Shown one piece after another: positions 26,759 to 62,629 of a DNA stretch of 64,000 nucleotides. The notes under the pieces were generated by a model that saw only the letters and a list, made by a program, of their open reading frames with translations, was not told where the DNA came from and did not search any database. The stretch lies in IMG/VR virus record IMGVR_UViG_3300046534_001361, positions 1-64,000 of that record; one strand, 5' to 3'. This DNA is from a virus. Made by a program: the position numbers and the translations under genes. Every line of letters begins with the position of its first letter. Within the stretch, counting starts at the first letter, position 1.

Positions 26759-26780
26759 GCCCGGCTATCTAATGCCGGGC
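26759..26780 (+). terminator. Cassette terminator hairpin
   Basis: GCCCGGC / GCCGGGC stem with a TATCTAAT loop, next to the dyad promoter of the following Imm5-like gene. The same hairpin recurs near 32458, 33799, 46094, 54380 and 55060. Confidence 0.65.
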
Positions 26781-26788
26781 AAACTAAA

Positions 26789-26838
26789 TTAAACCAATTT
26801 TATTTAAAAGTTGCAGTCTGTCATCAGTGTGTTAATAT
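26789..26838 (+). promoter_or_regulatory. Dyad promoter, cassette type (copy a)
   Basis: A TTTAAA-armed dyad (26789-26808), then TTGCAG (26811-26816), 16 bp ending GTGTGT, and TAATAT (26833-26838). It drives the Imm5-like gene at 26888. Six more copies of this architecture occur in the window. Confidence 0.75.
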
Positions 26839-26887
26839 CAATTCATCGGCAAGACGCCGCAAGCCACTACCAAAAGCGAGAAATAAA

Positions 26888-27550
26888 ATGACAGCACCAA
26901 CAATTACAAAGCAAGAACTAATAAAATTAGGCGCAGACCAGGACCTAATTAGCCGGTTCATCGAACAAACCAATAACACCGATCAGCCAGTTGATATCCT
27001 AAGTTTAATCGGCGCAGAGAACGCCACGGATGATCTTTTATGGTTAGCCGGTAAAATTCTCCCAAAAATCAAAATTGTACAGTTTACCGTTGAGTGCGCA
27101 GAAAGTTTGTCGCATCTACACACCGATCCCAGTGCTATTGCTGCGATCCAAGCGGCCAGGGATTGGATATCGGAACATCCCGAGGGGAATAGATTAAAAG
27201 CTCGTGATGCTGCTTATGCTGCGGCTAATGCTGCTGCTTCTGCTGCTGCTTCTGCTGCGGCTTATACTGCGGCTAATGCTGCGGCTAATGCTGCTGCTTA
27301 TACTGCTGCTTCTGCTGCGGCTTATACTGCGGCTAATGCTGCGGCTAATGCTGCTGCTTATACTGCGGCTTATGCTGCTGCTTCTGCTGCTGCGGCTAAT
27401 GCTGCTAATACTGCTATCTATGCCGCTTATGCTGCTTCAAATGCTGCTGTTAATGCTGCTTACGCTGCTTATGCTGCTAGTGCTGCTGCTGATTATGCTG
27501 CATCAAATGAAGTGGTTCGGGCCTCGCTGATCAAGATGTTTTCAGAATAA
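26888..27550 (+). CDS. Imm5-like alanine-repeat protein, copy 3 (longest tail)
   Basis: A 220-aa protein with the family core (LGADQDLISRFIEQTNNTDQ, LLWLAGKILPK, ECAESLSHLHTDP). Its repeat tail of about 120 residues is built from AAN, AAY and AAS triplets and is the longest here. Leader bases between promoter and start (GGCAAGACGCC) are shared with other cassettes. A membrane or surface-protective role is possible; the helical tail may be variable in length. Confidence 0.65.
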   Translation: MTAPTITKQELIKLGADQDLISRFIEQTNNTDQPVDILSLIGAENATDDLLWLAGKILPKIKIVQFTVECAESLSHLHTDPSAIAAIQAARDWISEHPEGNRLKARDAAYAAANAAASAAASAAAYTAANAAANAAAYTAASAAAYTAANAAANAAAYTAAYAAASAAAANAANTAIYAAYAASNAAVNAAYAAYAASAAADYAASNEVVRASLIKMFSE

Positions 27551-27598
27551 ACGGAGTAACCACGATCCCTTGATAATCTTTAATTTACGTTGAGCAGA

Positions 27599-27633
27599 TT
27601 GAGTTTGAAATTAATTTCAAACTCAATTATACT
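27599..27633 (+). promoter_or_regulatory. Promoter overlapped by a 28-bp perfect palindrome
   Basis: 27599-27626 is a perfect palindrome (half site TTGAGTTTGAAATT). Inside it lies TTGAAA (27605-27610), then 17 bp, then TATACT (27628-27633). A repressor at the palindrome would block this promoter. Confidence 0.65.
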
Positions 27634-27639
27634 TAAAGT

Positions 27640-27772
27640 ATTGACACAGACCGGAACCTTTTAGGGGTGTTGATGTCGGAGGAAACTTTCCCAGCCTGTG
27701 TGCGGGATATTGAAAGGCAACGCCGGATTTGATTTTATTCTATAAAAAAGCGCATTAACAATGCTCTTTTTT
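27640..27772 (+). ncRNA. Candidate ~130-nt regulated transcript
   Basis: From the start predicted by the TTGAAA-17-TATACT promoter to the terminator at 27744-27772. ACACAG (27644) can pair with CTGTGT (27696), and CCGG strings lie near both ends. It also holds a 19-codon frame (27673-27732) after an AGGGG ribosome site, so it could be a leader peptide or an sRNA. No family recognised. Confidence 0.4.
27744..27772. terminator. Bidirectional terminator
   Basis: AAAAAAGCGCAT, TAACA loop, ATGCTCTTTTTT: a 12-bp stem with one mismatch and T-runs on both strands. It separates the plus-strand unit from the 121-aa minus-strand gene. Confidence 0.75.
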
Positions 27773-27793
27773 GTTGCAAGATACAGTATCCGT

Positions 27794-28159
27794 TTATTTA
27801 CTGCCCCATCTATGCGGCCTATGCCTATCCTGATGATTCAATCTTTTAAATCCATCAATTAGCATTTCATTTGCGCAGTTAATTACATCAGGTTCTAATT
27901 TCTTGTTATTTTTCCGATTGACTTTGTAATGAACACCACGAATGTCATACCAATACTGACCAATTTTAGAGTAAACGTGACCCTCAATACAGTCATGCCA
28001 GATCTCATGATTGGCTTGCCCTACAATGTTTCTTAATATTAGACTAAACCGGTAGCACTCACCTTCAGTATAGAGCCTGACGGCATCAGGATTACTATCT
28101 CGTATAGCGCCTATAATGGCAACAAGATGTTTTTTTGTTGGTTTATTGAACGCCATCAT
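27794..28159 (-). CDS. Conserved phage hypothetical, 121 aa
   Basis: A basic protein with a TEGECYRFSLILR segment and GHVYSKIGQYWYDIRG, a pattern I associate with small phage proteins found near packaging or lysis genes. No catalytic motif can be named. It lies downstream of the large terminase and may be in the same leftward unit. Confidence 0.5.
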   Translation of the reverse strand: MMAFNKPTKKHLVAIIGAIRDSNPDAVRLYTEGECYRFSLILRNIVGQANHEIWHDCIEGHVYSKIGQYWYDIRGVHYKVNRKNNKKLEPDVINCANEMLIDGFKRLNHQDRHRPHRWGSK

Positions 28160-28405
28160 AAAGCCTCTTTGCTTTTGAATGAATTGAGTTTGACTTTTTA
28201 TTTATCTGATCGTAAAAATAGCGTGGCCGAATATCTCACCCTAAATAGTTTTAAATATTAAGCCAGTAAATACAATCGTGTATTACTGGCCCTTCGCAAA
28301 GTTTTAACCCTGTGTTTATATACCCCTGACCTTATCACATTATATTGTTTAGCTTTGATTGATTCAAAGTGATACCAACCAATATAATAGACTTTAATTC
28401 CAAGC
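28160..28405. other. Noncoding stretch after terL with hairpin
   Basis: 246 bp with no convincing gene. It contains an inverted repeat at 28262-28290 (GCCAGTAA arms, then an AT-rich tail on the minus strand) that may terminate or attenuate the terminase transcript. Confidence 0.5.
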
Positions 28406-30016
28406 CTACTTAAATTTAGGTCCAAAAACTGCTTTTTTACGGCCTAAAATAGTAACAGCTGCATATCTGAATGCGTCTGCCCCGTGTGATGACCAATCAT
28501 GTAACGGTTGATCACGCCAGCATTCGCCTTTATCATTCCATGCTTTTCGGTATGCCTCCAGTGCTTTAATTCCAAGCTCGCAGGTCTTTTCGTCAAAAAC
28601 CGATTTATCTAAAAGTTTCCTGGCGTGATTTATACCCTGATCAACACCCAGCTTTGGCACTGTCTGAAATATTATTTTATACAATTGCCCGTCATCATCT
28701 AAATCAAACCCTATTGCGGCCACTTGTTTAGTTGTTTTTGCTCCAGTAGCTGAAAATTGCCTATTGTCGATATCATGGGGGCCGTAGTGAGTGCCATACG
28801 TGTACTTCTTGGCAATCCCTCTATTCCTGATGTATTTAGCGTAATGATCCAAACCTTCACCGCTGTTTTCATAGTAATCAACAAAATGAATTTGATTGTT
28901 AATTTCTTGCCAAAACCAAATTGCAGTTGAATCACCTACGCCCAGATCCCATGCTGTATTAACCCTAGCGTCATTGCCAAATCCTGAGCAAATACGTTTT
29001 TCTTTGTGTATTTCGGTAAATTGAGTTTTATAGTAAGCGCCTTGAATGGTTTTTTCAAACGCTTCTTCAGGTGTTGTTGGGTATTCCTGCCGCATCTCAT
29101 CCCGTAGAGTGTTCCATTTACCAGAATACCAAGCTCTTCGATCGTCATTAATAACTATACCAAGCGTAGCTTCTAGATTATCAAAGTAAGGGATCAGCGT
29201 TTGCGCTATGTCGCCGCCCGGTAAAATATATTCTTCCCTCTGGAACCAGCTGTAAAAATGCCCCTTCCAATCGAGATTTGATAACACTTTTTGAAGCCTC
29301 ACATTTTTTAGGCCGTCCTGACAGATTTCATAATAATAACCCTCCCGCCCATCTGCTGTAGACTCCAGGGTTATACTTCCGTTGACTGGTACAGCCTCAA
29401 ACGCACCGCTGATTATCTCTTTTGCAACGTCTGGGCTATTCCTGCATATTTTTCCAAATTCAGACACGTGTAAATCATCCAGTGTATCACCCCGGTACCC
29501 TGTGCTGACCTCTACACTGGATCCGTTAGAAAATACATATGAGTTACTAGTGTCTGATTTTGCTAATGGCAGCTCATACCCCATTTCTGAGATGATCTCT
29601 CGCTGCACCTGGGTTATTGACTCAAACGCGAATTTTATTTTATTGCGGAATATTTTTTTGGCGTCATCCATTTTATGACATATAACACCGGAGGCAAAAT
29701 TAGCAACAAACAAACAACTGTCCAAGTTTTGAATCATTTTAAACGTAGTAAAACCTAATTGCCTGACCTTTAAAATAACATCCCTTGTGTGGCTGTTTAG
29801 ATAGTAGTGTTCCTGTTCTTTGTTTGCTTTAAATGTGATCACTTTGCTTGCGCAATCCTCGTCCTCGTCCGGGCTTGCCTTTGTCTTTATCTTGTAGAGC
29901 GTGTTAATCCTAAACCAGGTGTAGGTCATGGCCTCAGCCATTTGGTCTATATTAAGATCGCTTACATTGTTTAAATACCAACACGCTTGATTGTGGTTCT
30001 CAGTGCTTACTGCCAC
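28406..30016 (-). CDS. terL: Terminase large subunit
   Basis: A 536-aa packaging motor. The N-terminal ATPase shows a Walker-A-like VRQLGFTT segment (about 85-92), an adenine/coupling region ending LESTADGREG near 215-224, and the C-terminal nuclease has TAWDLGVGDSTAIWFW with the first acidic residue, ending DAFRYAA. It starts with GTG at 30016, overlapping the small subunit by 17 bp. Family: headful-type large terminase, inferred from fold order. Confidence 0.85.
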   Translation of the reverse strand: MAVSTENHNQACWYLNNVSDLNIDQMAEAMTYTWFRINTLYKIKTKASPDEDEDCASKVITFKANKEQEHYYLNSHTRDVILKVRQLGFTTFKMIQNLDSCLFVANFASGVICHKMDDAKKIFRNKIKFAFESITQVQREIISEMGYELPLAKSDTSNSYVFSNGSSVEVSTGYRGDTLDDLHVSEFGKICRNSPDVAKEIISGAFEAVPVNGSITLESTADGREGYYYEICQDGLKNVRLQKVLSNLDWKGHFYSWFQREEYILPGGDIAQTLIPYFDNLEATLGIVINDDRRAWYSGKWNTLRDEMRQEYPTTPEEAFEKTIQGAYYKTQFTEIHKEKRICSGFGNDARVNTAWDLGVGDSTAIWFWQEINNQIHFVDYYENSGEGLDHYAKYIRNRGIAKKYTYGTHYGPHDIDNRQFSATGAKTTKQVAAIGFDLDDDGQLYKIIFQTVPKLGVDQGINHARKLLDKSVFDEKTCELGIKALEAYRKAWNDKGECWRDQPLHDWSSHGADAFRYAAVTILGRKKAVFGPKFK

Positions 30017-31075: not shown

Positions 31076-31133
31076 AAATACTGCTTTTTTATGATTTAAC
31101 CCTTAATATTTTTGTTATGGCGCAATGCACCGG

Positions 31134-31304
31134 CTATTCCAGGTCCCACACATCAGAGTGAATAAAATCTAAATCTTTGGATTCTTCAAGGTCCGCAAGT
31201 TTTTTGCGGACCTTTGTTGCTTTTTCAGTATCGTTGGCGTTTCGATACCATAACGGTTTTCGGCTGACTAGAGCACCGACTTTCTTTTGCTCAGACATAC
31301 TCAT
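31134..31304 (-). CDS. Small protein with FIHSDVWDLE tail, copy 1
   Basis: A 56-aa protein from the ATG after GAGGAT (31304). Its C-terminus and the ~40 bp past its stop are nearly identical to the gene at 32176-32358 (FIHSxVWDLE). The N-terminal parts differ, so a shared 3' segment has been attached to different starts. Function unknown. Confidence 0.45.
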   Translation of the reverse strand: MSMSEQKKVGALVSRKPLWYRNANDTEKATKVRKKLADLEESKDLDFIHSDVWDLE

Positions 31305-31315
31305 GATTTTAATCC

Positions 31316-31777: not shown

Positions 31778-31781
31778 GATT

Positions 31782-32136: not shown

Positions 32137-32175
32137 CGTTTAATCCTCAATTTTTGTTATGGTGCAATGCACCGA

Positions 32176-32358
32176 CTATTCCAGGTCCCACACCTCAGAG
32201 TGAATAAATTCTAACTCTTTGGCCTTTTCAAGCTCTGACAGCACGTTACGCGCTATACGTTGCATGGATCTTTTATTGACCCTGCGCCATGCCAACGCTA
32301 GAGGTGTGCGCTCGATAAATGTGTCTAATGTATCAGTGTTGTAAGTGCATGATTTCAT
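32176..32358 (-). CDS. Small protein with FIHSEVWDLE tail, copy 2
   Basis: A 60-aa protein sharing its last ~12 residues and about 78 bp of DNA at and beyond its end with the 31134-31304 gene. The N-terminal half is unrelated (Arg-rich helix). It is driven by a cassette-type dyad promoter (32400-32450). Confidence 0.5.
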   Translation of the reverse strand: MKSCTYNTDTLDTFIERTPLALAWRRVNKRSMQRIARNVLSELEKAKELEFIHSEVWDLE

Positions 32359-32399: not shown

Positions 32400-32450
32400 A
32401 TAATAACACACCCAGTGCGGGATGCAACTTTTAAATCAAATTGGTTTAAA
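32400..32450 (-). promoter_or_regulatory. Dyad promoter, cassette type (copy b)
   Basis: A perfect TTTAAA-armed 21-bp dyad (32430-32450), TTGCAT, 16 bp ending GTGTGT, TATTAT. Same architecture as 26789, orientated leftward. It drives the 60-aa FIHSEVWDLE gene. Confidence 0.75.
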
Positions 32451-32457
32451 TTAAATT

Positions 32458-32478
32458 CCCGGCAATTAGATAGCCGGG
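32458..32478 (-). terminator. Cassette terminator hairpin
   Basis: CCCGGC / GCCGGG stem with a 9-base loop, between the 104-aa gene and the dyad promoter at 32400. Same unit as at 26759. Confidence 0.6.
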
Positions 32479-33244: not shown

Positions 33245-33682
33245 TTACGCCGCCCTTAAAGTGATCACCCAGCCATTGTTTTTATCAGCCAGCTCTTTAA
33301 TCTGATTAGTCAATCTTGTTTTGAACTCCCAAACAAAGATACTCGCAGAATCATTAATAATGCAGGCATGAACAAACCCATCGGCAACAGCATTTTTAAC
33401 GTATGAATAAAATGGCCCGTCCCCGATTATTCTACCGACTGGCGAAAAACATTTATATTTTTCTTTTTCATTGACCACTAAAAAGTATTCGTTTTCAATT
33501 AATTTCACAAGGCCCTTTACAGTTTTAAACGTGCCAGGGGCATTGTTAACGGATTTATGTATCTCTGCCGAATTGTTAGCAGGGCAATCATGACTATTGA
33601 TGTGATCCATAAATTCTGCTTTATTTGAAAAGGGTAAATTAACTTTAACAGACGGAGTAGGTTTGATTTTAACTAATGACAT
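33245..33682 (-). CDS. Hypothetical protein, 145 aa
   Basis: A soluble protein with strand-helix character (FKTVKGLVKLIENEYFLVV), driven by the cassette dyad promoter at 33741-33791. No family recognised. It is the downstream neighbour of an Imm5-like scar, so it probably replaced an Imm5 gene. Confidence 0.5.
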   Translation of the reverse strand: MSLVKIKPTPSVKVNLPFSNKAEFMDHINSHDCPANNSAEIHKSVNNAPGTFKTVKGLVKLIENEYFLVVNEKEKYKCFSPVGRIIGDGPFYSYVKNAVADGFVHACIINDSASIFVWEFKTRLTNQIKELADKNNGWVITLRAA

Positions 33683-33740: not shown

Positions 33741-33791
33741 ATAATAACACACTGAGCGGAGACTGCAACTTTTAAATTAAATCAGTTTAAA
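33741..33791 (-). promoter_or_regulatory. Dyad promoter, cassette type (copy c)
   Basis: TTTAAA-armed dyad (33771-33791), TTGCAG (33763-33768), 16 bp ending GTGTGT, TATTAT (33741-33746), with CCCGGC/GCCGGG hairpin at 33799-33819 behind it. Confidence 0.7.
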
Positions 33792-33798: not shown

Positions 33799-33819
33799 CC
33801 CGGCAATTAGATAGCCGGG
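33799..33819 (-). terminator. Cassette terminator hairpin
   Basis: CCCGGC / GCCGGG with AATTAGATA loop, followed by GATCTTGG on the plus strand. It belongs to the scar of an Imm5-like cassette whose 3' end is at 33833-33866. Confidence 0.6.
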
Positions 33820-33866
33820 ATCTTGGTTGCTCCGTTTATTCTCAAAATAGATTGATGAGTGAAGCC
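33820..33866 (-). pseudogene. 3'-end scar of an Imm5-like cassette
   Basis: On the minus strand the bases match the 3' end of the Imm5-like genes (the GCTTCACTCAT segment, TTTT-x-AGAATAAACGGAGCAACC, then the hairpin), but no upstream Imm5 coding remains. The last ~30 bp of coding plus the trailer survive. It indicates deletion or replacement of a cassette. Confidence 0.6.
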
Positions 33867-40144: not shown

Positions 40145-40225
40145 TTTAAATTCTCGCTCTTTTTTATATTATTGAGTTACTACATTAAGTTTTGTCGCCA
40201 CAAGTACAGTGCCGATGAATTCATA

Positions 40226-40702
40226 TTAACACAAATTATTGATTATTGTTTCGGCCTGCCCTTTATTAGCCATTAATACACTATCACCGTTGAGGTATAC
40301 AGCCTGGAAACCTCGGCTTTCGTAATATCGCTGTAGATTAAAACCCTTTAGTTGAGGTTCTGCTGTTAGAGCCACGAGTATGTCTACTTTTGTAACATCT
40401 AATGTCTGACTCTCAAAATTCGACATCAAAACCTTACCGTATCCCTGCCCTCGCCATATACGCTTAACGTATAGCTCAGCTAACAAACCCACCGTACCAT
40501 ATTTATCGCGTAAAATCGAGATCAGCGCATTGATGTAGCCGGATTTGTCAGGCAATGAAAGTATTAATTCGCCTTTCATCCATTTATAGCTCTCATCGTC
40601 GCTAGCTATGACTGTTCTGACTCGACCGTGATCACTCTCAGTTAGACATACGTGATCACGAGTCCACATTCCATCCGGCCAATTGCTACCGTTGACTATC
40701 AT
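40226..40702 (-). CDS. GNAT-family acetyltransferase
   Basis: A 158-aa protein with the acetyl-CoA motif VKRIWRGQGYGKVLM and a C-terminal YYESRGFQAVYL, typical of GNATs. Unrelated in detail to the GNAT at 31316. The target is unknown. It lies next to the sponge gene, in the defence/accessory zone. Confidence 0.7.
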   Translation of the reverse strand: MIVNGSNWPDGMWTRDHVCLTESDHGRVRTVIASDDESYKWMKGELILSLPDKSGYINALISILRDKYGTVGLLAELYVKRIWRGQGYGKVLMSNFESQTLDVTKVDILVALTAEPQLKGFNLQRYYESRGFQAVYLNGDSVLMANKGQAETIINNLC

Positions 40703-45549: not shown

Positions 45550-46065
45550 TTATTTATCTAATATAACACGATTTCCAGTTAATAACGCAAGTGAAAAATC
45601 ACGGGCCTTATAGCAGTCCTCAGCTTCAAACCAGGCAAAATGACAATCAACTTCTTTGATTTCCATCAGGACAGCGAGTCGTTTATAAGCCCTGCCTGCA
45701 CCAATTAACTTACAAAGGGCCGTAAATGGAACTTTGCATTTTGCCCTAGTGGCTCTTAATTTTGCTTTAGCCATTGTGCCAATGGGGATGTATGTCCATA
45801 CATGACATCTTACGTGGCTGTCGCACGGTTCACAGCGGTAAATCCAAGGCCACTCGTTCGACTGCCCCCCAAAAACAACAAATCGATCAACTAGATTGAC
45901 TGGCCCGCCGCAATGCCTACAAAATTTAGGCACAGGCATTGGGTTTTGGTTTTTTATTTTATTTTTCATTTTACGTTTACTTTTGATTTTTGACTTTCGA
46001 TTTTTGAACTTCGTTATTTCATAACTCGCGGCTTTTTTAATGTAGTTTTTACCTGATTTTGACAT
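45550..46065 (-). CDS. DUF3268-like zinc-finger protein
   Basis: A 171-aa protein with a basic N-terminal tail (KFKNRKSKIKSKRKMK), then CRHCGGPV, YRCEPCDSHVRCH and a helical C-terminus with YKRLAVLME and EVDCHFAWF. It fits zinc-containing DUF3268 proteins found in phages. Nucleic-acid binding is likely; role unknown. The preceding cassette ends at 46113. Confidence 0.65.
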   Translation of the reverse strand: MSKSGKNYIKKAASYEITKFKNRKSKIKSKRKMKNKIKNQNPMPVPKFCRHCGGPVNLVDRFVVFGGQSNEWPWIYRCEPCDSHVRCHVWTYIPIGTMAKAKLRATRAKCKVPFTALCKLIGAGRAYKRLAVLMEIKEVDCHFAWFEAEDCYKARDFSLALLTGNRVILDK

Positions 46066-46093: not shown

Positions 46094-46113
46094 CCCGGCA
46101 TTAGATAGCCGGG
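46094..46113 (-). terminator. Cassette terminator hairpin
   Basis: CCCGGC / GCCGGG with ATTAGATA loop, after Imm5-like copy 4 and before the DUF3268-like gene. Confidence 0.6.
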
Positions 46114-46132: not shown

Positions 46133-46741
46133 CTATGAAAATAGCTTCCTTAGTGAAGCCTGAACCACTCTATTGGATGCAACATAAGCCGCATAAGCAG
46201 CATAATTAGGATCAAAAGCATCAGCATTAGCATCATAAGCAGCATTAGCAGCATTAGCAGCATAATAAGCGGCATTATAAGCAGCATTAGCAGCATTAGC
46301 ATCATAAGCAGCCTTAGCAGCGTAATAAGAAGCATAAGCCGCATTGGCCGCATTGGCAAAAGCAGCAGGATAAGCAGCGTTAAGAGCATTACTAGCAGCA
46401 TAAGCAGCGTAATTAGCAGTATTACGGGCGTTCAATCTATTCTCCTCGCATGGTTTCCTTATCCAGTCATTAGCCGATTGGATCGCAGCATTATCACTCG
46501 GATTATTGTTCAGATGCGACACGCTTTCCGCGCACTCAACGGCAAACTGTACAATCTTGATTTTTGGGAGAGTTTTACCGGCAAACCATAAAAGATCAGC
46601 CGTGGTATTCTTTCCGCAGATTAAACTAAGTACATTAACAGCCTGATCAGTGTTGCCTGTTTGTTCGATAAACCGGCTAATTAGGCCCTTGTCTGCGCCA
46701 AGGTCTACTAATTGTTTTTTCGTAATTGTTGCCGTTGTCAT
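46133..46741 (-). CDS. Imm5-like alanine-repeat protein, copy 4
   Basis: A 202-aa protein with the family core (LGADKGLISRFIEQTGNTDQ, LLWFAGKTLPK, FAVECAESVSHL) and a Tyr/Ala/Asn-rich tail of about 90 residues. It is driven by the dyad promoter at 46795-46845 with the GGCAAGACGCC leader, and followed by the cassette hairpin. Confidence 0.65.
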   Translation of the reverse strand: MTTATITKKQLVDLGADKGLISRFIEQTGNTDQAVNVLSLICGKNTTADLLWFAGKTLPKIKIVQFAVECAESVSHLNNNPSDNAAIQSANDWIRKPCEENRLNARNTANYAAYAASNALNAAYPAAFANAANAAYASYYAAKAAYDANAANAAYNAAYYAANAANAAYDANADAFDPNYAAYAAYVASNRVVQASLRKLFS

Positions 46742-46794: not shown

Positions 46795-46845
46795 ATATTA
46801 ACACATTAACAGTTGATTGCAACTTTTAAATCAAATTGGTTTGAA
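46795..46845 (-). promoter_or_regulatory. Dyad promoter, cassette type (copy d)
   Basis: TTTAAA/TTTGAA-armed dyad (46825-46845), TTGCAA (46817-46822), 16 bp ending TGTGT, TAATAT (46795-46800). Drives Imm5-like copy 4. Confidence 0.75.
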
Positions 46846-46875: not shown

Positions 46876-46898
46876 AAAAAGGCCACCCGCAGGTAGCC
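46876..46898 (-). terminator. Intrinsic terminator after 91-aa gene
   Basis: GGCTACC / GGTGGCC-type stem followed by TTTTTATTG on the minus strand. It ends the 47189-46914 transcript. Confidence 0.65.
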
Positions 46899-47554: not shown

Positions 47555-48382
47555 TTATTTTTTACCTGAGTTGTTTATTTTTTTGAATGAGTTTATTGCA
47601 GAGGTGAAATCGTCAACTCCGAGGTGTTTGCACGTTCTGATTATTACACTAATCATTGACGGCTTGACACCGGATAGAATTGAAATCTGCTTGGTATTCA
47701 TTAATCCCTCTTGATAAACAAACTTTATCGCTAGTAGACGTTTACGTCGGTCATCAATCACGCCGGTTACGTCCTGACCCCGGCCAATGCTTACTTTACT
47801 GATCAGCCCGGAAACAAACTCATAACTTAGCCCGACGGCCTCAGAAATCTCCTTGATAGTCATTAATTTGCCTTGATAAATAAACTGCTTGCCTCTTTTT
47901 GTAAGCCGGTCATCAATCACGCCGGTTACGTCATTACCAGGTTCGATGTTCGATTTATTGATCAGGATGCGAACGTGTGGATACCCCAGCCCGACGGCAT
48001 TAGAAATATCATGAACAGACATTAATTTATTTTGATAAATGTACTGATCTACTTTATTTCGGTCATCAATAAGGCTAGTTATGTCATGGTCGGGGCGAAT
48101 GCTTGCTTTGCGGATCAGCCGACAAACTAATTGGTAGCTCAACCCGACGGCATCAGAAATATCACGTATAGACATTAATTGATTTTGATAAATGTACTTT
48201 ATCCCTGATCTCCCCCCCCCTTCACGCCGGTCATCAATTAGGCTGGTTACGTCGTGGCCGGATTTGATGCTGGATTTACGTATCAGCTGGACAACCAAAT
48301 TATAGCTTCGCCCAATGGTCTCAGAAATATCACGCATAGACATTAATTTTCCGCTGTATAAATAAACTACAGATTTACTCAT
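47555..48382 (-). CDS. Tandem HTH-repeat protein, five modules
   Basis: A 275-aa protein made of five ~52-56-residue modules. Each reads (I/V/F)YQ-x-x-LM, then (R/K)(D/E)IS-x-x-x-GxSY-x-x-V, then I-x-GHDVTSLIDDR or variants, a short strand and a helix-turn-helix-like core. Modules are close to NUMOD-type elements of phage HNH proteins but stand alone here. A G9 tract lies at 48212-48220 inside codons for module 1-2. It shares an operon with a four-module paralogue and an NrtS-like protein. Sequence-specific DNA binding by repeats is a plausible role. Confidence 0.6.
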   Translation of the reverse strand: MSKSVVYLYSGKLMSMRDISETIGRSYNLVVQLIRKSSIKSGHDVTSLIDDRREGGGRSGIKYIYQNQLMSIRDISDAVGLSYQLVCRLIRKASIRPDHDITSLIDDRNKVDQYIYQNKLMSVHDISNAVGLGYPHVRILINKSNIEPGNDVTGVIDDRLTKRGKQFIYQGKLMTIKEISEAVGLSYEFVSGLISKVSIGRGQDVTGVIDDRRKRLLAIKFVYQEGLMNTKQISILSGVKPSMISVIIRTCKHLGVDDFTSAINSFKKINNSGKK

Positions 48383-49062
48383 TACTGATCACCTTTTTTA
48401 ACTTGAGTTCGTTTCATTTGACGCTGACCAAAACCCCTCAAAACCAATTCGGTAACGTCGCTGCCAGGTGGGTAATTGCCTGATTTTATTCTTTTAACAA
48501 TTCCGTGATATCCAACGCAGGAATTTTCTGACAGCTCTTTTTGTCCCATTAACTTACCCATAAGCAACCATTTACCGGCTTTTCTTGCTGGGTTTAAAGC
48601 TAACTCTGTAACGTCGCTGCCAGCCGGGTAATTGCCTGATTTGATTCTGCGCAAAACTGTGGAATAGAGAACCCAGGATTTTTCTGACAGTTCTTTTACG
48701 CCCATTAACTTACCTTGATAAATGTACTTTATCCCTGACCGCCCCCCCGTTTTACGCCGGTCATCAATTAGGCTGGTTACGTCGTGACCAGGTTCGATGC
48801 TCGCTTTATTGATCGGCCTGCGAACCAAATTATAGCTTCGCCCAATGGCCTCAGAAATATCACGAGTAGACATTAATTTATTTTGATAAATGTACTTTAC
48901 CCCTGATCTCCACCGGTCATTAATAAAGCAGGTTACGTCATGACCAGGTTGGATGTTCACTTTATTGATCAGCAGACAAACTAATTGGTAGCTCAACCCG
49001 GCAGATTTAGAAATATCACGCATAGACATTAATTTACCATCGTATAAATAAAATTTACTCAT
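48382..49062 (-). CDS. Tandem HTH-repeat protein, four modules
   Basis: A 226-aa paralogue of the preceding gene, made of four modules of the same kind, with the last two diverged (KELSEKSWVLYSTV, KELSENSCVGYHGI) and a basic tail (RQMKRTQVKKGDQ). A TAATG overlap joins it to the five-module gene, and DNA of matching modules is near identical, so modules were copied recently. A G7 tract is at 48742-48748. Confidence 0.6.
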   Translation of the reverse strand: MSKFYLYDGKLMSMRDISKSAGLSYQLVCLLINKVNIQPGHDVTCFINDRWRSGVKYIYQNKLMSTRDISEAIGRSYNLVRRPINKASIEPGHDVTSLIDDRRKTGGRSGIKYIYQGKLMGVKELSEKSWVLYSTVLRRIKSGNYPAGSDVTELALNPARKAGKWLLMGKLMGQKELSENSCVGYHGIVKRIKSGNYPPGSDVTELVLRGFGQRQMKRTQVKKGDQ

Positions 49063-54379: not shown

Positions 54380-54402
54380 GCCCGGGGATTAAATAGCCGG
54401 GC
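54380..54402 (-). terminator. Cassette terminator hairpin
   Basis: GCCCGG / CCGGGC stem with a GGATTAAATAG-type loop, after Imm5-like copy 5. Variant of the repeated cassette hairpin. Confidence 0.6.
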
Positions 54403-54421: not shown

Positions 54422-54946
<525 letters not shown>

Positions 54947-54999: not shown

Positions 55000-55050
55000 A
55001 TATTAACACATTCAAAGCAGACTGAAGATTTTAAATCTAATTAGTTTAAA
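55000..55050 (-). promoter_or_regulatory. Dyad promoter, cassette type (copy e)
   Basis: TTTAAA dyad (55030-55050), CTTCAG (55022-55027), 16 bp ending TGTGT, TAATAT (55000-55005). The -35 is weaker than in other copies. Confidence 0.7.
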
Positions 55051-55059: not shown

Positions 55060-55080
55060 CCCGGCTATTAGATGGCCGGG
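55060..55080 (-). terminator. Cassette terminator hairpin
   Basis: CCCGGC / GCCGGG stem with TATTAGATG loop, between Imm5-like copies 6 and 5. GGATCGTGGTTGCTCC-type trailer matches other cassettes. Confidence 0.65.
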
Positions 55081-55096: not shown

Positions 55097-55693
55097 TTAT
55101 TCTGAAAACATCTTCATGAGTGAAGCTTGAACCACTTCATTTGATTCCGCATAAGCAGCAGTATAAGCAGCAGCATAAGCATCATCAGCATAGATAGCAG
55201 CATCATTAGCATTAGCATGAGCAGCAGCATAAGCAGCAGCATAAGCAGCATAAACAGCAGAAACAGCAGCATCAGCAGCACAATAAGCAGGAGAAGCTAC
55301 ATAAGCAGCAGAAGCAGCATAAGCAGCAGCATCATAAGCAGCATCACAGACTTTCAATCTATTCACCTCGGATGGTTCCGATATCCAATCCTTAGCCGAT
55401 TGGATCGCAGCATTAGCTCTGGGATCGGTGTGTAGATGCGACACACTTTCAGCGCATTCAACGGCGAACTGCACTATCCTGTGCTTTGGCAGGGTTTTAC
55501 CGGCCAACCACAGAAAATCAGCCGTGGTATTTTTGCCACCGATCAAACTAAAAATCTCAACGGGTTGATCGGTGTTGCCGGTTTGTGCGATAAATCGATC
55601 AAAACCCGGCTTACACGCACCGAGATCTACTAATTGTTTTTTCGTAATTGTTGGTGCTGGTGCTGGTGCTGGTATTGGTATTGGTGCTTTCAT
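55097..55693 (-). CDS. Imm5-like alanine-repeat protein, copy 6
   Basis: A 198-aa copy with a longer PIPIPAPAPAP N-terminal repeat, the family core (LGACKPGFDRFIAQTGNTDQ, LWLAGKTLPKH, ECAESVSHLHTDP) and an Ala/Tyr/Asp tail. It directly follows the dnaB gene and uses the dyad promoter at 55747-55797, whose dyad overlaps the dnaB stop. Confidence 0.65.
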   Translation of the reverse strand: MKAPIPIPAPAPAPTITKKQLVDLGACKPGFDRFIAQTGNTDQPVEIFSLIGGKNTTADFLWLAGKTLPKHRIVQFAVECAESVSHLHTDPRANAAIQSAKDWISEPSEVNRLKVCDAAYDAAAYAASAAYVASPAYCAADAAVSAVYAAYAAAYAAAHANANDAAIYADDAYAAAYTAAYAESNEVVQASLMKMFSE

Positions 55694-55746: not shown

Positions 55747-55797
55747 ATATTAACACACTGGCGGCAGGGTGCAACTTTTAAATCAAATAAGTTTAAT
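55747..55797 (-). promoter_or_regulatory. Dyad promoter, cassette type (copy f)
   Basis: TTTAAA dyad (55777-55797), TTGCAC, 16 bp ending TGTGT, TAATAT. The dyad abuts the stop of dnaB, so the cassette was inserted right after the replication operon. Confidence 0.7.
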
Positions 55798-57161: not shown

Positions 57162-57922
57162 CGAAGAGATCCCCAATCGAAAGCAATTTCAAAACCGCCG
57201 TCTTGTTTTAACCGGTCCATGCATCGCTCACCGATCACGGCGGAAACGGATTCACGGGTTAAATTGCTAATCAGGATCGTAGGTCGTCGTTGTTGGTAGC
57301 GATTGTCGATAACATCAAAGATAAACATTTTTTCAGTGTCGGTCCCACGCTGTACGCCGATCTCGTCAATAACCAATAAATCTAAATTACTGTAGTGATC
57401 GATAATATCAGACTCTTCGAATTCAGATGATTTACTCCATGACCCTTTGAGCTTGCGGATCATATCCATGAGTTTAACGATCTCGCAATTGTGATTATCA
57501 ACTAGCGATTCAACGATGCACGATGCCAATAACGTTTTACCGGTACCAACTGATCCGATCATTAACATGTTACTGACATCAGGGAAGTTAAATAAAAAAC
57601 AATTTACGGCGTTTACGGCAATGAACTGATTGTTTGTTGTCACAGGAAAATTGTTAATGTCGTTACCAATAAATCTTGGTGAGATACCGGCATTGACGCA
57701 TTTCTTGTTATGACGTTCACATACGAGTTTTGATCTTACACCTTGCATGTGAATTTGATTTTCTTCGGAAATCCTGTCAGATGCGCATTTTGGACATGTC
57801 TCAGAGTGTACATATCTCAGTGAAAATCCAGCCCCGACTTGTATATAAGTTGGTTTGAAATCCCCGTGAATATTGCACCGTATCGGGATAATGTTTTTTG
57901 GCATTGTAGTTGACTCGATCAT
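57155..57922 (-). CDS. DnaC-like helicase loader
   Basis: A 255-aa AAA+ protein. An N-terminal Cys region (CNIHGD, ETCPKCASDR) is followed by Walker A GSVGTGKTLLA (~125), Walker B LDLLVIDEIGVQ (~185) and a SNLTRES sensor region. It loads DnaB at the origin in the initiator gene. Its 3' end overlaps the dnaB gene by 7 bp. Confidence 0.85.
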   Translation of the reverse strand: MIESTTMPKNIIPIRCNIHGDFKPTYIQVGAGFSLRYVHSETCPKCASDRISEENQIHMQGVRSKLVCERHNKKCVNAGISPRFIGNDINNFPVTTNNQFIAVNAVNCFLFNFPDVSNMLMIGSVGTGKTLLASCIVESLVDNHNCEIVKLMDMIRKLKGSWSKSSEFEESDIIDHYSNLDLLVIDEIGVQRGTDTEKMFIFDVIDNRYQQRRPTILISNLTRESVSAVIGERCMDRLKQDGGFEIAFDWGSLRC

Positions 57923-58701
57923 AATTTACCGCCCTGAAATGGCCCTGTTGCCATTTTCATGTTCATTGGTGTTGATTGCTGGCTTTGCGTGAATTTCTGA
58001 TTGGCAGTGTTTCTGCCAATAAATTCCTCAACTTTACCGGCGTTCCTAAATATCAGATCAATTGAGTTGAAAACCGTTCCAGAATCATTTTTACCCATGT
58101 GATAATCAGATTTTTTACAGCCTCTGATTGCCTCGATCAGCTGATCAGGGGTAAAACCCTCTTTCAATCGGGCCTCAATTTTTGATCTCCGATCTTTGGT
58201 TAGTTTGGAACTGCTCTTGCCCATAATTTCTTGCCAGCGGCTAAAGACAAATTCACAGTCAGTTTTAATAACAATTTTTAATTCCTCAATAGTGTTCGGA
58301 TCACTTTTAAGTTCATTGTTAAGTTCATTGTTAGGATCGTCCGCAGATTCTGCGGGGGTGTGGTGCAGATTCTGCGGGGGTGTGGTGCAGATTCTGCGGG
58401 GGTGTGGTGCAGATTCTGCGGGGGTTGGCTGATCGTGCAGCTCGATCTCAATGCTTTTTAATGTGTAAATACTACTTGTTCCAGCACGTTCTTTGATGTT
58501 TAAAAAGCCGTCTTTTTCCAGTGTTTTTACATGGCCTTGGAATGCCCTTTCAGACATCGAACAGTTGCCAGCCATTTTAGGTATCGAGTACCAACTAACG
58601 CCGTCGTCGTTTGAATTATTAGCTAGCTGCAATAGAGTTAATTTTAATGGAGCTTTTTTTATTTCTTGTTCCCACGCCCAAAAAGTCCATTTAGCTGACA
58701 T
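57919..58701 (-). CDS. O-like replication initiator with internal origin
   Basis: A 260-aa protein with an N-terminal winged helix (LQLANNSNDDGVSWYSIPKMAGN then SMSERAFQGHVKTLEKDGFL) for DNA binding and a C-terminal helical domain (SKLTKDRRSKIEARLKEGF) for loader contact. The central proline/Ala linker is encoded by four tandem 22-bp iterons at 58343-58425, as in lambda O. Start at 58701 from an AAGGA site. An ATG two codons upstream is possible. Confidence 0.8.
   Translation of the reverse strand: MSAKWTFWAWEQEIKKAPLKLTLLQLANNSNDDGVSWYSIPKMAGNCSMSERAFQGHVKTLEKDGFLNIKERAGTSSIYTLKSIEIELHDQPTPAESAPHPRRICTTPPQNLHHTPAESADDPNNELNNELKSDPNTIEELKIVIKTDCEFVFSRWQEIMGKSSSKLTKDRRSKIEARLKEGFTPDQLIEAIRGCKKSDYHMGKNDSGTVFNSIDLIFRNAGKVEEFIGRNTANQKFTQSQQSTPMNMKMATGPFQGGKL
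58262..58425. repeat. Replication origin: iterons and AT-rich flank
   Basis: Four copies of GCAGATTCTGCGGGGGT start at 58343, 58365, 58387 and 58409, exactly 22 bp apart. Each contains the dyad GCAGAtTCTGC. Two AAGTTCATTGTT repeats and an AT-rich segment (58262-58330) lie on one side. This is the classic lambdoid ori inside the initiator gene. Confidence 0.8.
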
Positions 58702-59329
58702 TGGCATTTCCTTCTTCGTAGCCTGTGGATTTTAATATAGCCAATCTGACCGCCTCATCATTGTTGTTAAGAACATCCGCAAGCAGCGCTATGTCATTAT
58801 GCAGTTTACTTCTTAATTTTAACTGCATAACAGTGGCCTCTTCCCAACAAGTAACTCCGCAAGCCAGTTTTATTTTTGAGGCTACGCTTGTTATTGTTTT
58901 TGGGAAATCTGTTTTTCTTGTTTCCCTGACAAAAAGCGCACCGCACATTTTCTTGTAACTGTCCCCACTTTCATTTCGATGCTTAATAAGGCTATCAAAT
59001 ATCCATTCATAAGTTTCAATTTTTAACTTGGGGCTAATGGCTAGCGCCATGTCAATAAATAAAAGTGGGTGTAGCCAAGTGTGGGCGCCTCTGCCTCGCG
59101 CTGATTTTTTCACTTTGTCCTTACCAAACTTTATTTGAAGCTCAGATACAAACTCCTTAGTGCCCTTGTTTTGTAACCAAGCCTTCATCACAAAAAGCGG
59201 CATTGAATTTACTGCCCGCCAAGAATTGCCAAGCTTAACTAAGTCGGTTGCGCTAAACATCTCTGTTTTGCTGTGCTGCGTTATATGTCCGCCTAGTAGC
59301 GGTCTTTGCATTAGTGTTACTGTCTTCAT
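58691..59329 (-). CDS. KilA-N domain protein
   Basis: A 212-aa protein with the KilA-N pattern: TEMFSATDLVKLGNSWR, WLQNKGTKEFVSELQ and GAHTWLHPLLFIDMALAI, then a helical end. KilA-N proteins bind DNA in phages and often affect host replication. First gene of the replication operon, under the 59362-59390 promoter. Confidence 0.8.
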   Translation of the reverse strand: MKTVTLMQRPLLGGHITQHSKTEMFSATDLVKLGNSWRAVNSMPLFVMKAWLQNKGTKEFVSELQIKFGKDKVKKSARGRGAHTWLHPLLFIDMALAISPKLKIETYEWIFDSLIKHRNESGDSYKKMCGALFVRETRKTDFPKTITSVASKIKLACGVTCWEEATVMQLKLRSKLHNDIALLADVLNNNDEAVRLAILKSTGYEEGNANVS

Positions 59330-59361
59330 GAATACTCACTTAGGGGTTGTTAATATCCTTA

Positions 59362-59390: not shown

Positions 59391-59521
59391 TAATATTGAG
59401 GATTTATAGGCGGGTTTATTTTTAATGAAATTTAACACTCTATTATTTTGACGTGCTTACTTTTGCTAGGGGGTTTTTATTGGGAGTAATTCAATCAGGG
59501 GTCGATATTTTAATTACAAGG

Positions 59522-59557
59522 ATCTTTAATATTAAACCTGAGTTTAATATTAAAGAT
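59522..59557 (-). terminator. Perfect 16-bp hairpin downstream of the 84-aa gene
   Basis: Arms ATCTTTAATATTAAAC and its exact complement flank a CTGA loop. On the minus strand it lies after the stop at 59570 and could terminate that transcript, though GC content is low and no T-run follows. An operator role is also possible. Confidence 0.45.
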
Positions 59558-59569
59558 TTCATTTTAGCC

Positions 59570-59824
59570 TTACTGGTTAATCAATGATCCTTGACTCGCC
59601 AATCGCTCTAAAACATCAACAAACCCGCGCATACATTCAACATTACCGATCATTTTATCAACGCTAAACTTATCAATAATGTCTTGCTCTAAATAACCTG
59701 CACCGCCATTTTTAAACAGTAACGTATCACCCTCGTAAATAGGATTGCCGCGCGAGTCTATTAATGTTGTATTCCGTTTCATTTCTAATAATTGTTCAAG
59801 CTCACTTTCTGGTAAATTATTCAT
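59570..59824 (-). CDS. Hypothetical protein, 84 aa
   Basis: Helical acidic start (PESELEQLLEMKRNTTLID), then a strand (GNPIYEGDTLLFKNGGAGY) resembling small YopX/DUF-type phage proteins that contain a two-strand IYEGDxLLFK motif. Not assigned. Tight spacing after the HTH gene suggests shared control. Confidence 0.5.
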   Translation of the reverse strand: MNNLPESELEQLLEMKRNTTLIDSRGNPIYEGDTLLFKNGGAGYLEQDIIDKFSVDKMIGNVECMRGFVDVLERLASQGSLINQ

Positions 59825-59827
59825 GAT

Positions 59828-60073
59828 TTACCCCTCGATCTTATCAGTGTTATTGCTCAAAACTCTGGTATAAATAACTTTCCTATTTACCTGAATTTCA
59901 ATCTCAAGACCCAGATCCTCAAGAATTCTTTTTGTTGGGTTGGCCCTGCCACAGGTTACCGATGAAATAAAGGAAGCTGATACACCAAGATGTTTAGCGT
60001 ACTTACCTTGATTTGAACCGTGGTTGGCAGCAATGTAAATTCTGAGTTCTTTTGCAAAGTTAACTTCTGACAT
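59828..60073 (-). CDS. Cro/CI-like XRE regulator
   Basis: An 81-aa helix-turn-helix protein: QGKYAKHLGVSASFISSVTCGRANP is the HTH, with a short C-terminal strand for dimerisation. Size fits Cro. It faces a divergent promoter region with TGGTTAA direct repeats (60105-60128). It likely represses the plus-strand early genes or itself. Confidence 0.7.
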   Translation of the reverse strand: MSEVNFAKELRIYIAANHGSNQGKYAKHLGVSASFISSVTCGRANPTKRILEDLGLEIEIQVNRKVIYTRVLSNNTDKIEG

Positions 60074-60246
60074 ATTTATTCCTATTTGGTTTTTATATAC
60101 CTTAGCATTTAACCAACAAGTTAACCAGATAATTATTTAATTAATTACAAGAAATGAACTAAAATTTAGTTGTGATTGAGGTTTGACTGTGCTAAGATGG
60201 AATCTAAATAAATTGCTACAACGACAATTAAAACAGGTGAAGAACG
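60074..60246. promoter_or_regulatory. Divergent early control region
   Basis: Between the XRE gene and the plus-strand unit. TGGTTAA direct repeats lie near 60105-60128; plus-strand TTGTGA, 17 bp, TAAGAT or TTGACT, 16 bp, TAAATA are both possible promoters. The exact elements are uncertain. Confidence 0.5.
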
Positions 60247-60903
60247 ATGAACAAATTACAAAAAGAAACGGCAATCGAACTGATGAAAGGCCACCAGGTT
60301 GCTGATCTAATTCAACAGGGAGATTGGTTTAACCCAATTTCCGGCGTAGGCTGCTGTTACGGGTGCATGATGCAAACGGATGATAACGCGCTAGAAAAAG
60401 CAGCGGTATTTATGGGCGTACCCCTTTGGTTCGTTTATCTGTCAGAAGCTGTGTTCGAGGGATTGCCGGAAGAAGATTCTATCTTTTTTCCGGTACAATT
60501 GCTGCAATTGATCCCGGTCGATACCGATTTAACCCCAGTCCTGCATTTAACGGCAATTGCCCGGTTAACGCCGCTAGCGGCGTTAACAACGGGTGAAGTG
60601 AAATCTTGCATCAATGCGGTGATTGATTTACACAAGGATTGGGAGAATGCAACAATTGAAATGTGGAGGGCCGCGCAGAAAGCAGCACACAAAGCATGGT
60701 TAGAATGTCCAGTGTTTACAGCCGCAGAGTCAGCCGCAAAGTCAGCGGCATATTCGGCGGGATTGTCAGCAGAGTCAGTATATTCGGTATGTTCGGGGGC
60801 ATGGTCAGCACTTTCAGCACTTTCAGCACGGGGTTCAGGAGGCATATCGCCAAGGGAACAGGAGCGGGATAATTTATTTGCAGCCCTGCGCAGTATCAGT
60901 TAA
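60247..60903 (+). CDS. Ala/Ser-repeat accessory protein, copy 2
   Basis: A 218-aa inverted paralogue of the gene at 19190-19951, sharing the AGGTGAAGAACG leader and a near-identical first 140 residues (GCCYGCMMQ motif, first 68 identical). It lacks the ~20-residue insertion and has its own SAAKSAAYSA tail. The two copies, 40 kb apart and in opposite orientation, could recombine. Function unknown. Confidence 0.7.
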   Translation: MNKLQKETAIELMKGHQVADLIQQGDWFNPISGVGCCYGCMMQTDDNALEKAAVFMGVPLWFVYLSEAVFEGLPEEDSIFFPVQLLQLIPVDTDLTPVLHLTAIARLTPLAALTTGEVKSCINAVIDLHKDWENATIEMWRAAQKAAHKAWLECPVFTAAESAAKSAAYSAGLSAESVYSVCSGAWSALSALSARGSGGISPREQERDNLFAALRSIS

Positions 60904-60944
60904 ATCTAAATTAAACAATAAATAAATCTAATTCGGTAATTATA

Positions 60945-61166
60945 ATGTTGGTAAATAATTGGAATGAAGTAGTGTTTTTACTTTTGCTGGCTTTTTGTTT
61001 TATGATATTTTTTTTATCTCTTTGTGCATGTGCGTACATTTCATATAAGTCATTTCTTGGTGATCATCAATTCACCTGCCAGGCTGAAAAAAATAGGCAG
61101 GGAGACACTGCAATTATAAAGGTGATGATTCTATTTATTGGAACATTTATTTTAAGCCAAATTTAA
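60945..61166 (+). CDS. Two-TM membrane protein
   Basis: A 73-aa protein with spans near 8-30 and 55-73, connected by a basic loop. Mostly Phe/Leu (VVFLLLLAFCFMIFFLSLCA). No homologue recognised. It follows the accessory gene by 41 bp, so it may share its transcript. Confidence 0.5.
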   Translation: MLVNNWNEVVFLLLLAFCFMIFFLSLCACAYISYKSFLGDHQFTCQAEKNRQGDTAIIKVMILFIGTFILSQI

Positions 61167-61205
61167 ATATATCATTTTCTAGCCCCCTACATAAAGGTGA
61201 TCATC

Positions 61206-61385
61206 ATGGCAACTACATCATTCAACAAAAACTTTGTTGTAACAGATCAAACTAGTATAAAAAACTTAGCAAAAGATCTTCTTACGCCACATAAAATTGT
61301 AATTAATAAACGTGATTATCAAACTGATAAAGTTAAAGGTATCGAACTATTAAAACAACGATTGCTCAGCTTAAAGGCTTGCTAA
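61206..61385 (+). CDS. Hypothetical protein, 59 aa
   Basis: The ATG at 61206 follows AAAGGTGAT. A basic protein with a helical C-terminus (KGIELLKQRLLSLK). Short tail-less antitoxin-like look, but no partner toxin is visible. Function unknown. Confidence 0.45.
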   Translation: MATTSFNKNFVVTDQTSIKNLAKDLLTPHKIVINKRDYQTDKVKGIELLKQRLLSLKAC

Positions 61386-61845
61386 AAGCATTTAATAAAG
61401 AAGTATTTTAAGTTAAACAATAACTCAAAACATAGGGAAATACCTTACTAATGATCAAACGAGACTAAGAACTAATTTGAGGCGTTGATAAAATGATCGT
61501 TTATCCTGGCATCATAGGCACTAGCAAAGGGTCTCGATTATTTTTTAGGTTGCCTGTCTTGAATGACACCTAGTGCGCATAAATCATAAACCCGATAACT
61601 AATTTGAAATAAATAGATTTAAAAATTGCAGTGTTATATAAGTATCTGTATAGTACGTAATGTAAACTAATATAGTATGAACAAACTATATTAATTATAC
61701 AGCATTATATTCCTGCAAATTTCACCTTACGCGAACTTATTAACTTTCAATAAGTCAAAATGTAAAAAACATATACTACCAACATGGAAAGCATAAGAAC
61801 CTTATAGTGGTATGTCATATTTTAAGAATAAATAGAGGATCTAAA
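61386..61845. other. Long noncoding leader with promoter and inverted repeat
   Basis: 460 bp without a supported gene. TTGCAG (61626-61631), 17 bp, TATAGT (61649-61654) is a promoter for the HTH gene. A TAATATAGT/ACTATATTA inverted repeat (61668-61693) lies just downstream, inside the ~190-nt leader, and could be an operator or RNA hairpin. Confidence 0.5.
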
Positions 61846-62139
61846 ATGAAGTCATTCAATAACGCTTTCGAGTTGTTAACAGACGATGTCAAAGAGATAG
61901 AAAACTACACAATGCGTTCAAACATGATGAATGCGATCGTTGATTTAATTAAGGAGAAAGATTGGACACAAAAAGAAGCAGCTAAACACTTAGATGTGTC
62001 ACAGCCGCGCATTAGCAACCTGAAGAACGGGAAAGTAAGTAAGTTTTCAGTTGATATGCTAATAGGGATGTTAGCTAAGCTAGGTTTTACCTTTGAATTT
62101 AACTACACCCCCACAAAGCAAGCCGACATTAATTTATAA
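61846..62139 (+). CDS. HigA-like XRE antitoxin/repressor
   Basis: A 97-aa protein started at the ATG behind GAGGATC (61846). Residues TQKEAAKHLDVSQPRISNLKNGK are a canonical XRE HTH, followed by a GMLAKLGFTFEF dimerisation region as in HigA-type antitoxins. No toxin gene is adjacent, so it may be a phage repressor instead. Confidence 0.65.
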   Translation: MKSFNNAFELLTDDVKEIENYTMRSNMMNAIVDLIKEKDWTQKEAAKHLDVSQPRISNLKNGKVSKFSVDMLIGMLAKLGFTFEFNYTPTKQADINL

Positions 62140-62158
62140 GTAAATAACGGGAATTAAC

Positions 62159-62578
62159 ATGAATAACGAACTTAACAAAAAGTACCTTTTCGCTCTGTGT
62201 GAATTTATAAAAAATAAAGAGGAAATGGAAGAATTCAAATTGGAATCAATACAGTCTGGATTGCTAACTAAACAGGATTGTTCAAATTTTGAGTGCTCTG
62301 ATCAACCACTGCCATTGACTAACTATCCTGGTTCCGTTGAAGGTCCAATGAAAAAAATTACTCATTTTATGGAACTCAACCCGGACTATGCGCACTCCTG
62401 GACGGCCAATATTGCAATGCTGATGTTTGACGAGGGCGTTAGCCATCATTCAGCAAATCAGCGGGCATCTAGGTTTGTTGCTCGCGTGTTTGATTTATCG
62501 TTTATTCCGGAGCAGCCAGAGCGGGCTAACGATAATGCAATAAACACGCCGGCGGTTACAATGGAATTATCCACATAA
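62159..62578 (+). CDS. Hypothetical protein, 139 aa
   Basis: Acidic, helical protein (LCEFIKNKEEMEEFKLES). Second half has WTANIAMLMFDEGVSHHSANQRASRF. No family recognised. It follows the XRE gene by 20 bp. Confidence 0.5.
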   Translation: MNNELNKKYLFALCEFIKNKEEMEEFKLESIQSGLLTKQDCSNFECSDQPLPLTNYPGSVEGPMKKITHFMELNPDYAHSWTANIAMLMFDEGVSHHSANQRASRFVARVFDLSFIPEQPERANDNAINTPAVTMELST

Positions 62579-62629
62579 TTCAAACCAATTAGATTTAAAG
62601 ATTGCATCTTACGGTTAATGTGTTAATAT
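62579..62629 (+). promoter_or_regulatory. Dyad promoter, cassette type (copy g)
   Basis: Dyad (62579-62599), TTGCAT (62602-62607), 16 bp ending TGTGT, TAATAT (62624-62629). This is the rightmost copy and drives the 95-aa gene. Confidence 0.7.

What the first reader, a model, noticed from the sequence alone, without database searches (positions are those of the whole stretch)
26759..62629. Seven co-regulated cassette promoters with a shared dyad, several paired with a conserved hairpin
The sequence shows seven near-identical units (26789, 32400, 33741, 46795, 55000, 55747, 62579): an about 21-bp TTTAAA-armed dyad, TTGCA-type -35, exactly 16 bp ending TGTGT, TAATAT or TATTAT. Several are immediately preceded by a CCCGGC/GCCGGG hairpin that ends the previous gene. 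Four drive Imm5-like genes and three drive unrelated small genes. This resembles phage morons, but with one common operator-like dyad, implying one regulator for a whole accessory regulon. Such a dyad-linked regulon is, to my knowledge, not a named phage element.
Basis: partly seen in the sequence, partly recalled or inferred. Interest (0 to 1): 0.86.

Follow-up and report, generated by a model that had tools for sequence, protein, structure and literature searches.

The report
Shuffled promoter–hairpin modules in a phage
One phage genome carries eight copies of the same promoter, several attached to a hairpin that ends the previous gene, placed in front of accessory genes; this looks like a kit of reusable on/off parts for swapping genes, while the idea that one regulator controls them all remains unproven.

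Summary
All seven units are present: a 21-bp TTTAAA-armed imperfect dyad, 2 bp, TTGCA, 12 variable bases and TGTGTTAATAT/TATTAT. An eighth, diverged copy lies at 61603. The dyad, -35 and -10 are conserved (85–100% mean pairwise identity) while the spacer is not (44%), so the parts are constrained rather than freshly copied. No exact match was found in IMG/VR or one-per-species GTDB genomes. The parts also occur separately: hairpin without promoter (46094, 54381), promoter without hairpin (46795, 55747, 62579, 61603), -10 plus leader only (40210), leader only (23380, 26269), and a 3' scrap of a lost gene (33820). That is the signature of gene shuffling at conserved regulatory junctions, as in the PeSL promoter/stem-loop elements of T4-like phages and a related motif in haloarchaeal virus HGTV-1. 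The dyad lies where an UP element or an upstream activator site would. Its symmetry is only modestly better than chance (p about 0.004–0.01), and no binding protein was identified. The 'Imm5-like' genes are DUF6931-related. Verdict: a real PeSL-like composite element in a lambda-organised phage; the single-regulator regulon is possible but unproven. In passing: an SraL-family small RNA gene at 27640–27775.

The parts
26788..26838 (+). unit 1: dyad 26788-26808, -35 TTGCAG 26811-26816, -10 TAATAT 26833-26838; before DUF6931-like gene 26888-27550
32400..32450 (-). unit 2: dyad 32430-32450, TTGCAT, TATTAT; before ORF 32176-32358 (60 aa)
33741..33791 (-). unit 3: before ORF 33245-33682 (145 aa, no family)
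46795..46845 (-). unit 4: before DUF6931 gene 46133-46741; no CCCGGC hairpin, but an intrinsic terminator upstream at 46881-46898
55000..55050 (-). unit 5: -35 degraded to CTTCAG; before DUF6931 gene 54422-54946
55747..55797 (-). unit 6: abuts the stop codon of the DnaB-like gene; before DUF6931-like gene 55097-55693
62579..62629 (+). unit 7: directly follows the stop codon of ORF 62159-62578; before ORF 62678-62965
61603..61654 (+). unit 8 (new, diverged): TTTGAAATAAATAGATTTAAA-AA-TTGCAG-17-TATAGT, about 190 bp before HTH gene 61846-62139
26760..26779 (+). hairpin CCCGGC-TATCTAAT-GCCGGG after DUF6931 gene 26269-26742
32458..32478 (-). hairpin directly before unit 2
33799..33819 (-). hairpin directly before unit 3
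55060..55080 (-). hairpin directly before unit 5
46094..46113 (-). hairpin after DUF6931 gene 46133-46741, no promoter following; joins straight to the RBS leader of 45550-46065
54381..54401 (-). hairpin (5-bp stem) after DUF6931 gene 54422-54946, no promoter following
23975..23998 (+). GCCCC-TTAATT-GGGGC-TTTTT intrinsic terminator in the same 3' context after DUF6931 gene 23380-23961
40210..40233 (-). partial unit: TGTGTTAATAT plus the first leader bases, no dyad or -35; at the 3' end of GNAT gene 40226-40702
33820..33866 (-). vestige of a lost DUF6931 gene 3' end (reads RASLINLF*E*) before the unit 3 hairpin
61846..62139 (+). HTH_37/XRE protein, candidate but unproven regulator; also has a 26-bp inverted repeat upstream (61668-61693)

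Best explanation
The units are PeSL-like regulatory junction modules. Each is a host sigma-70-type promoter (extended -10 TGTTAATAT, TTGCA -35 and a conserved A/T-rich upstream element with imperfect dyad symmetry), often joined to a terminator-like hairpin that closes the preceding gene. Because the same parts recur at many junctions, recombination between them (the phage carries RecT and a YqaJ-type exonuclease) can insert, swap or delete accessory genes, each arriving with its own start signal. Shown: the modules, their constraint, and mixed or partial copies. Inferred: promoter activity, partial termination at the hairpin, and recombination as the route. The upstream element most likely raises promoter strength, either by RNA polymerase alpha-CTD contact or by a dimeric activator; the evidence does not separate the two.
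For: Eight copies at constant dyad-to--35 geometry. Dyad 0.85, -35 0.89, TGTGT 1.00 and -10 0.92 mean pairwise identity against spacer 0.44; four units less alike in their leaders give the same pattern. Every promoter is co-directional with its neighbours. Parts occur in different combinations: hairpin+promoter x4, hairpin alone x2, promoter without this hairpin x4, -10+leader only, leader only, and a gene-end vestige. At 23961 the CCCGGC stem is replaced by a GCCCC/GGGGC stem with a U-tract in the same flank, which fits terminator ancestry. Two units abut the stop codon of the gene before. RecT and YqaJ genes are present.
Against: Most hairpins lack a U-tract, so termination may be weak or absent. 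No related genome was available to see a junction with and without a gene. The hexamers are poor sigma-70 matches (TTGCAN 3-4 of 6), below the consensus scan's threshold, so an activator may be needed. The upstream block fits the UP consensus poorly in phase (own comparison from general knowledge).
Confidence: 0.6

Rival explanations
1. Single-regulator regulon: a phage-encoded dimeric protein binds the dyad centred near -48 and activates all eight promoters together, as Ogr/Delta do at P2 late promoters. The leading candidate is the HTH_37 protein 61846-62139, whose own upstream region holds the eighth copy.
For: Proximal arm ATTTAAA invariant in 8 of 8 and distal AAAC in 7 of 8; fixed 2-bp distance to the -35; weak -35 hexamers; symmetry above composition-matched shuffles (p 0.004 to 0.011); eighth copy upstream of an HTH gene; module not found elsewhere, pointing to a phage factor.
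Against: Inner pairs are not kept (pair 7/15 never complementary, 8/14 and 9/13 in about half the copies or fewer; read). TTTAAA is self-complementary, so symmetry is partly automatic. The 61846 gene has a better inverted repeat of its own (61668-61693), and two phage homologues show no similar dyad upstream.
Confidence: 0.22
2. Plain sigma-70 promoters with an UP element, spread only because DUF6931 cassettes duplicated; no special junction role.
For: The 21-bp block occupies the UP interval; three DUF6931 units share long, nearly identical leaders, so duplication did happen.
Against: Three units drive unrelated genes with different leaders but keep the dyad; spacers diverged while dyads did not; separate partial parts exist.
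Confidence: 0.12
3. Dispersed repressor operators (as P1 C1 sites or L5 stoperators) silencing accessory genes in a prophage or plasmid state.
For: Scattered near-identical sites in one genome; P1 has 22 dispersed C1 operators (PMC8546580); a ParB-like gene and no tyrosine integrase hit would fit a plasmid prophage.
Against: The dyad lies upstream of the -35, an unusual place for repression; dyads occur only at these promoters; no CI-like repressor was recognised among the proteins scanned.
Confidence: 0.05

Closest known systems
PeSLs (promoter early stem-loops) of T4-like phages (Arbiol 2010, Comeau 2014; originals not held, read through PMC4503421)
   Same: Early-type promoter combined with a stem-loop in gene junctions, repeated in one genome, proposed to mediate gene shuffling
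   Different: Lambda-organised, non-T4 genome; an added conserved upstream dyad; hairpin mostly without U-tract; promoters sit on both strands
HGTV-1 conserved motif (haloarchaeal tailed virus; PMC3950731)
   Same: A repeated promoter-like box with an inverted repeat before many ORFs, likened to PeSLs
   Different: Archaeal TATA-type promoter and a different virus
Phage morons
   Same: Accessory gene with its own promoter and terminator set among phage genes
   Different: Here the flanking signals are the same sequence at many places
Phage P1 dispersed C1 operators (PMC8546580)
   Same: One short site repeated over a phage genome
   Different: P1 operators are 17-bp and asymmetric and bind a known repressor; here the binding protein is unknown
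P2 Ogr / P4 Delta late-promoter sites (own knowledge)
   Same: Dyad upstream of the -35 at several promoters of one phage
   Different: Those sites centre near -55 and drive late structural genes; here centre near -48 and accessory genes; no Ogr-like protein noted

Membership tests
PeSL | promoter and stem-loop form one composite repeated at gene junctions | tested here: met
   4 of 8 promoters directly follow the hairpin
PeSL | promoter resembles the strong early promoters of T4 (UP/-35/TGn/-10) | tested here: inconclusive
   TGn and -10 present and an A/T-rich block in the UP interval, but -35 matches are poor (PMC2988021)
PeSL | found in T4-like myoviruses | tested here: not met
   lambda-type layout and long-tailed non-T4 structural genes
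PeSL | shuffling seen between related genomes | not testable with these tools
   no related genome found; only within-genome mixed modules
phage moron | extra gene with own promoter and terminator | tested here: inconclusive
   promoter present; hairpins mostly lack a U-tract
single-regulator regulon (operator family) | symmetric site kept by compensatory change across copies | tested here: not met
   inner positions lose symmetry in half or more of the copies
single-regulator regulon (operator family) | a cognate DNA-binding protein | not testable with these tools
   HTH_37 protein 61846 is a candidate only
Imm5-like | score over the Pfam Imm5_like cut-off | tested here: not met
   best 17.3 and 19.6 bits against 25; DUF6931 matches better

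The most novel reading that the evidence does not exclude
A phage-encoded activator recognises the -48 dyad and switches on a dispersed accessory regulon, so any gene recombined into one of these junctions joins the same regulatory programme automatically: a plug-in regulon built on PeSL-like modules.
Probability: 0.22. Interest if true: 0.65.

Novelty: new variant of a known kind. Interest (0 to 1): 0.42.

Why it matters
It carries the PeSL idea (regulatory signals doubling as recombination joints) to an unrelated lambda-organised phage, and gives a compact system to ask whether accessory genes in such junctions share one control point. The partial modules show how junctions may be built and broken.

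Tried and rejected
Terminase-based search for related phages in IMG/VR: none. DUF6931 relatives in Vibrio, Shewanella and Salmonella phages: found, but without the dyad. DUF6931 module in bacterial genomes and plasmids: none. Dyad in the SraL-bearing Vibrio plasmids: none. Upstream regions of two HTH_37 homologues: no similar dyad. Defence families (PADLOC) for accessory genes: none. Structure model of the DUF6931 protein: too poor to use (pLDDT 55). My first genome pattern used a wrong spacer length. IHF and lambda CII sites were considered and set aside because the consensus did not fit (by eye, own knowledge). Homology of the gene convergent with the SraL-like RNA between phage and plasmids: not supported.

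Full report
The window is bases 1–64000 of a 76,279-base virus record. Its layout is lambda-like: replication genes (O-like, DnaC-like, DnaB), NinG, holin, terminase and structural genes on the minus strand, and RecT, YqaJ exonuclease and single-strand-binding genes on the plus strand (the single-strand-binding protein was recognised by eye). The nearest known phage terminases are about 55% identical (Pseudoalteromonas phages), and no close relative turned up in IMG/VR.

Observation. The seven units are real and have constant geometry: TTYAAACYNATTNNATTTAAA (first base A in two copies), two bases, TTGCA, twelve variable bases, TGTGTTAATAT or TGTGTTATTAT. With the matrix from the seven, the next best site in the genome scores far lower. 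An eighth, diverged copy at 61603 has the dyad and TTGCA at the same distance but a 17-bp spacer to TATAGT. Mean pairwise identity is 0.85 in the dyad, 1.00 in its proximal arm, 0.89 in the -35, 1.00 in TGTGT and 0.92 in the -10, but only 0.44 in the spacer and 0.50 in the 12 bases before the dyad. Units before unrelated genes (32400, 33741, 62579) keep the dyad too. The block is therefore constrained.

Modules. The hairpin CCCGGC-N8/9-GCCGGG with the flank ACCGAGCAACCACGAT belongs to the 3' side of genes, mostly DUF6931 genes. It occurs six times; four are followed at once by a promoter unit and two are not (46094, 54381). In those two the hairpin runs through CTAAATTTAAC or CTAAATTAAAC, close to the bases of the distal dyad arm, straight into a ribosome-binding leader. 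After gene 23380–23961 the same flank carries a true terminator with another stem and a U-tract. A -10 plus leader fragment lies at 40210, leader remnants stand before 23380 and 26269, and the end of a lost DUF6931 gene (RASLINLF*E*) is left at 33820 before unit 3. Units 6 and 7 abut the stop codon of the gene before. These combinations are what recombination at short shared junctions would leave; the recombination itself is inferred.

Nature of the dyad. Counted from the -35, the dyad covers the UP-element interval and centres near -48. Symmetry exceeds composition-matched shuffles (p 0.004 for a 21-bp frame, 0.011 for any frame), but this was measured on the consensus. In single copies the pair 7/15 is never complementary and pairs 8/14 and 9/13 are complementary in half or fewer. 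TTTAAA is its own complement, so two direct repeats give the same picture. The hexamers match the sigma-70 consensus poorly and the generic scan does not list the units, which would fit dependence on an activator or on upstream contacts. No result here decides between these.

Regulator. The HTH_37 protein at 61846–62139 (PF13744, 5.5e-23) lies downstream of unit 8, which suggests autoregulation, but a 26-bp inverted repeat (61668–61693) lies closer to it and would be as good an operator. Other DNA-binding candidates are 59828–60073 (weak CII/repressor-like match), KilA-N 58691–59329 and the repeat-HTH proteins 47555–49062. None is tied to the dyad.

Genes. The four 'Imm5-like' genes and two more paralogues (23380, 26269) share a 66-residue N-terminal module found in otherwise unrelated Vibrio, Shewanella and Salmonella 9NA-like phages and an alanine-rich tail; Pfam's better match is DUF6931. 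The other three driven ORFs have no family.

Comparison. PeSLs are described as promoter early stem loops that mediate gene shuffling between T4-like phages (PMC4503421, citing Arbiol 2010 and Comeau 2014, which are not held), and HGTV-1 has a similar motif with an inverted repeat (PMC3950731). The present element works like these but is not in a T4-like phage and carries an extra conserved upstream block, so I call it a new variant of a known kind. The claim of one common regulator is left open at about one in four to five.

Side finding. A gene for an SraL-family small RNA lies at 27640–27775, right after the DUF6931 gene of unit 1. It has homologues above the Rfam cut-off on three 79–81 kb Vibrio plasmids and does not share the dyad. 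It is unrelated to the regulon question but may deserve its own follow-up.

Noticed in passing
window 27640-27775 (+): SraL-family small RNA gene (Rfam RF01408, 58 bits against a cut-off of 39, full length) with promoter-like TTGAAA-17-TATACT and a terminator-like 3' hairpin. SraL in Salmonella pairs with the rho mRNA leader (PMC6582626). Homologues above the cut-off occur on three 79-81 kb Vibrio plasmids, and partial DNA matches on small E. coli, Enterobacter and Klebsiella plasmids. Not found in the other phages searched.
   Followed up: partly
window 27598-27627: Perfect 30-bp palindrome ATTGAGTTTGAAATTAATTTCAAACTCAAT directly upstream of the SraL-like -10, overlapping its -35: possible operator.
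   Followed up: no
window 58343-58447: Four 22-bp direct repeats (GCAGATTCTGCGGGGGTGTGGT) inside the O-like replication initiator gene 57919-58701: probable lambda-like origin iterons.
   Followed up: no
window 47555-49062; L006 10976-11677: Proteins built of tandem repeats of about 50 residues, each with a helix-turn-helix-like stretch (KLMSxxDISxxxGxSYxxVxxLI); a third relative lies at genome position 70976-71677.
   Followed up: no
window 19190-19951 and 60247-60903: Paralogous pair with an identical N-terminus (MNKLQKETAIELMKGHQVADLIQQGDW), far apart on opposite strands, no family match.
   Followed up: no
window 59522-59557: 36-bp inverted repeat with perfect 16-bp arms (ATCTTTAATATTAAAC / GTTTAATATTAAAGAT).
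   Followed up: no
window 31108-31193 and 32150-32235: Two small ORFs share a nearly identical 3' end (FIHSDVWDLE / FIHSEVWDLE) and downstream sequence, another sign of local gene shuffling.
   Followed up: no
L007 and L009, about 60 bp before position 2495: In two Vibrio phages the DUF6931-module gene has a different promoter-like stretch with a dyad over the -10 (TTGTTCTCAGGTATTATGCTTGAGAACAA), so own promoters with a dyad recur with unrelated sequence.
   Followed up: no
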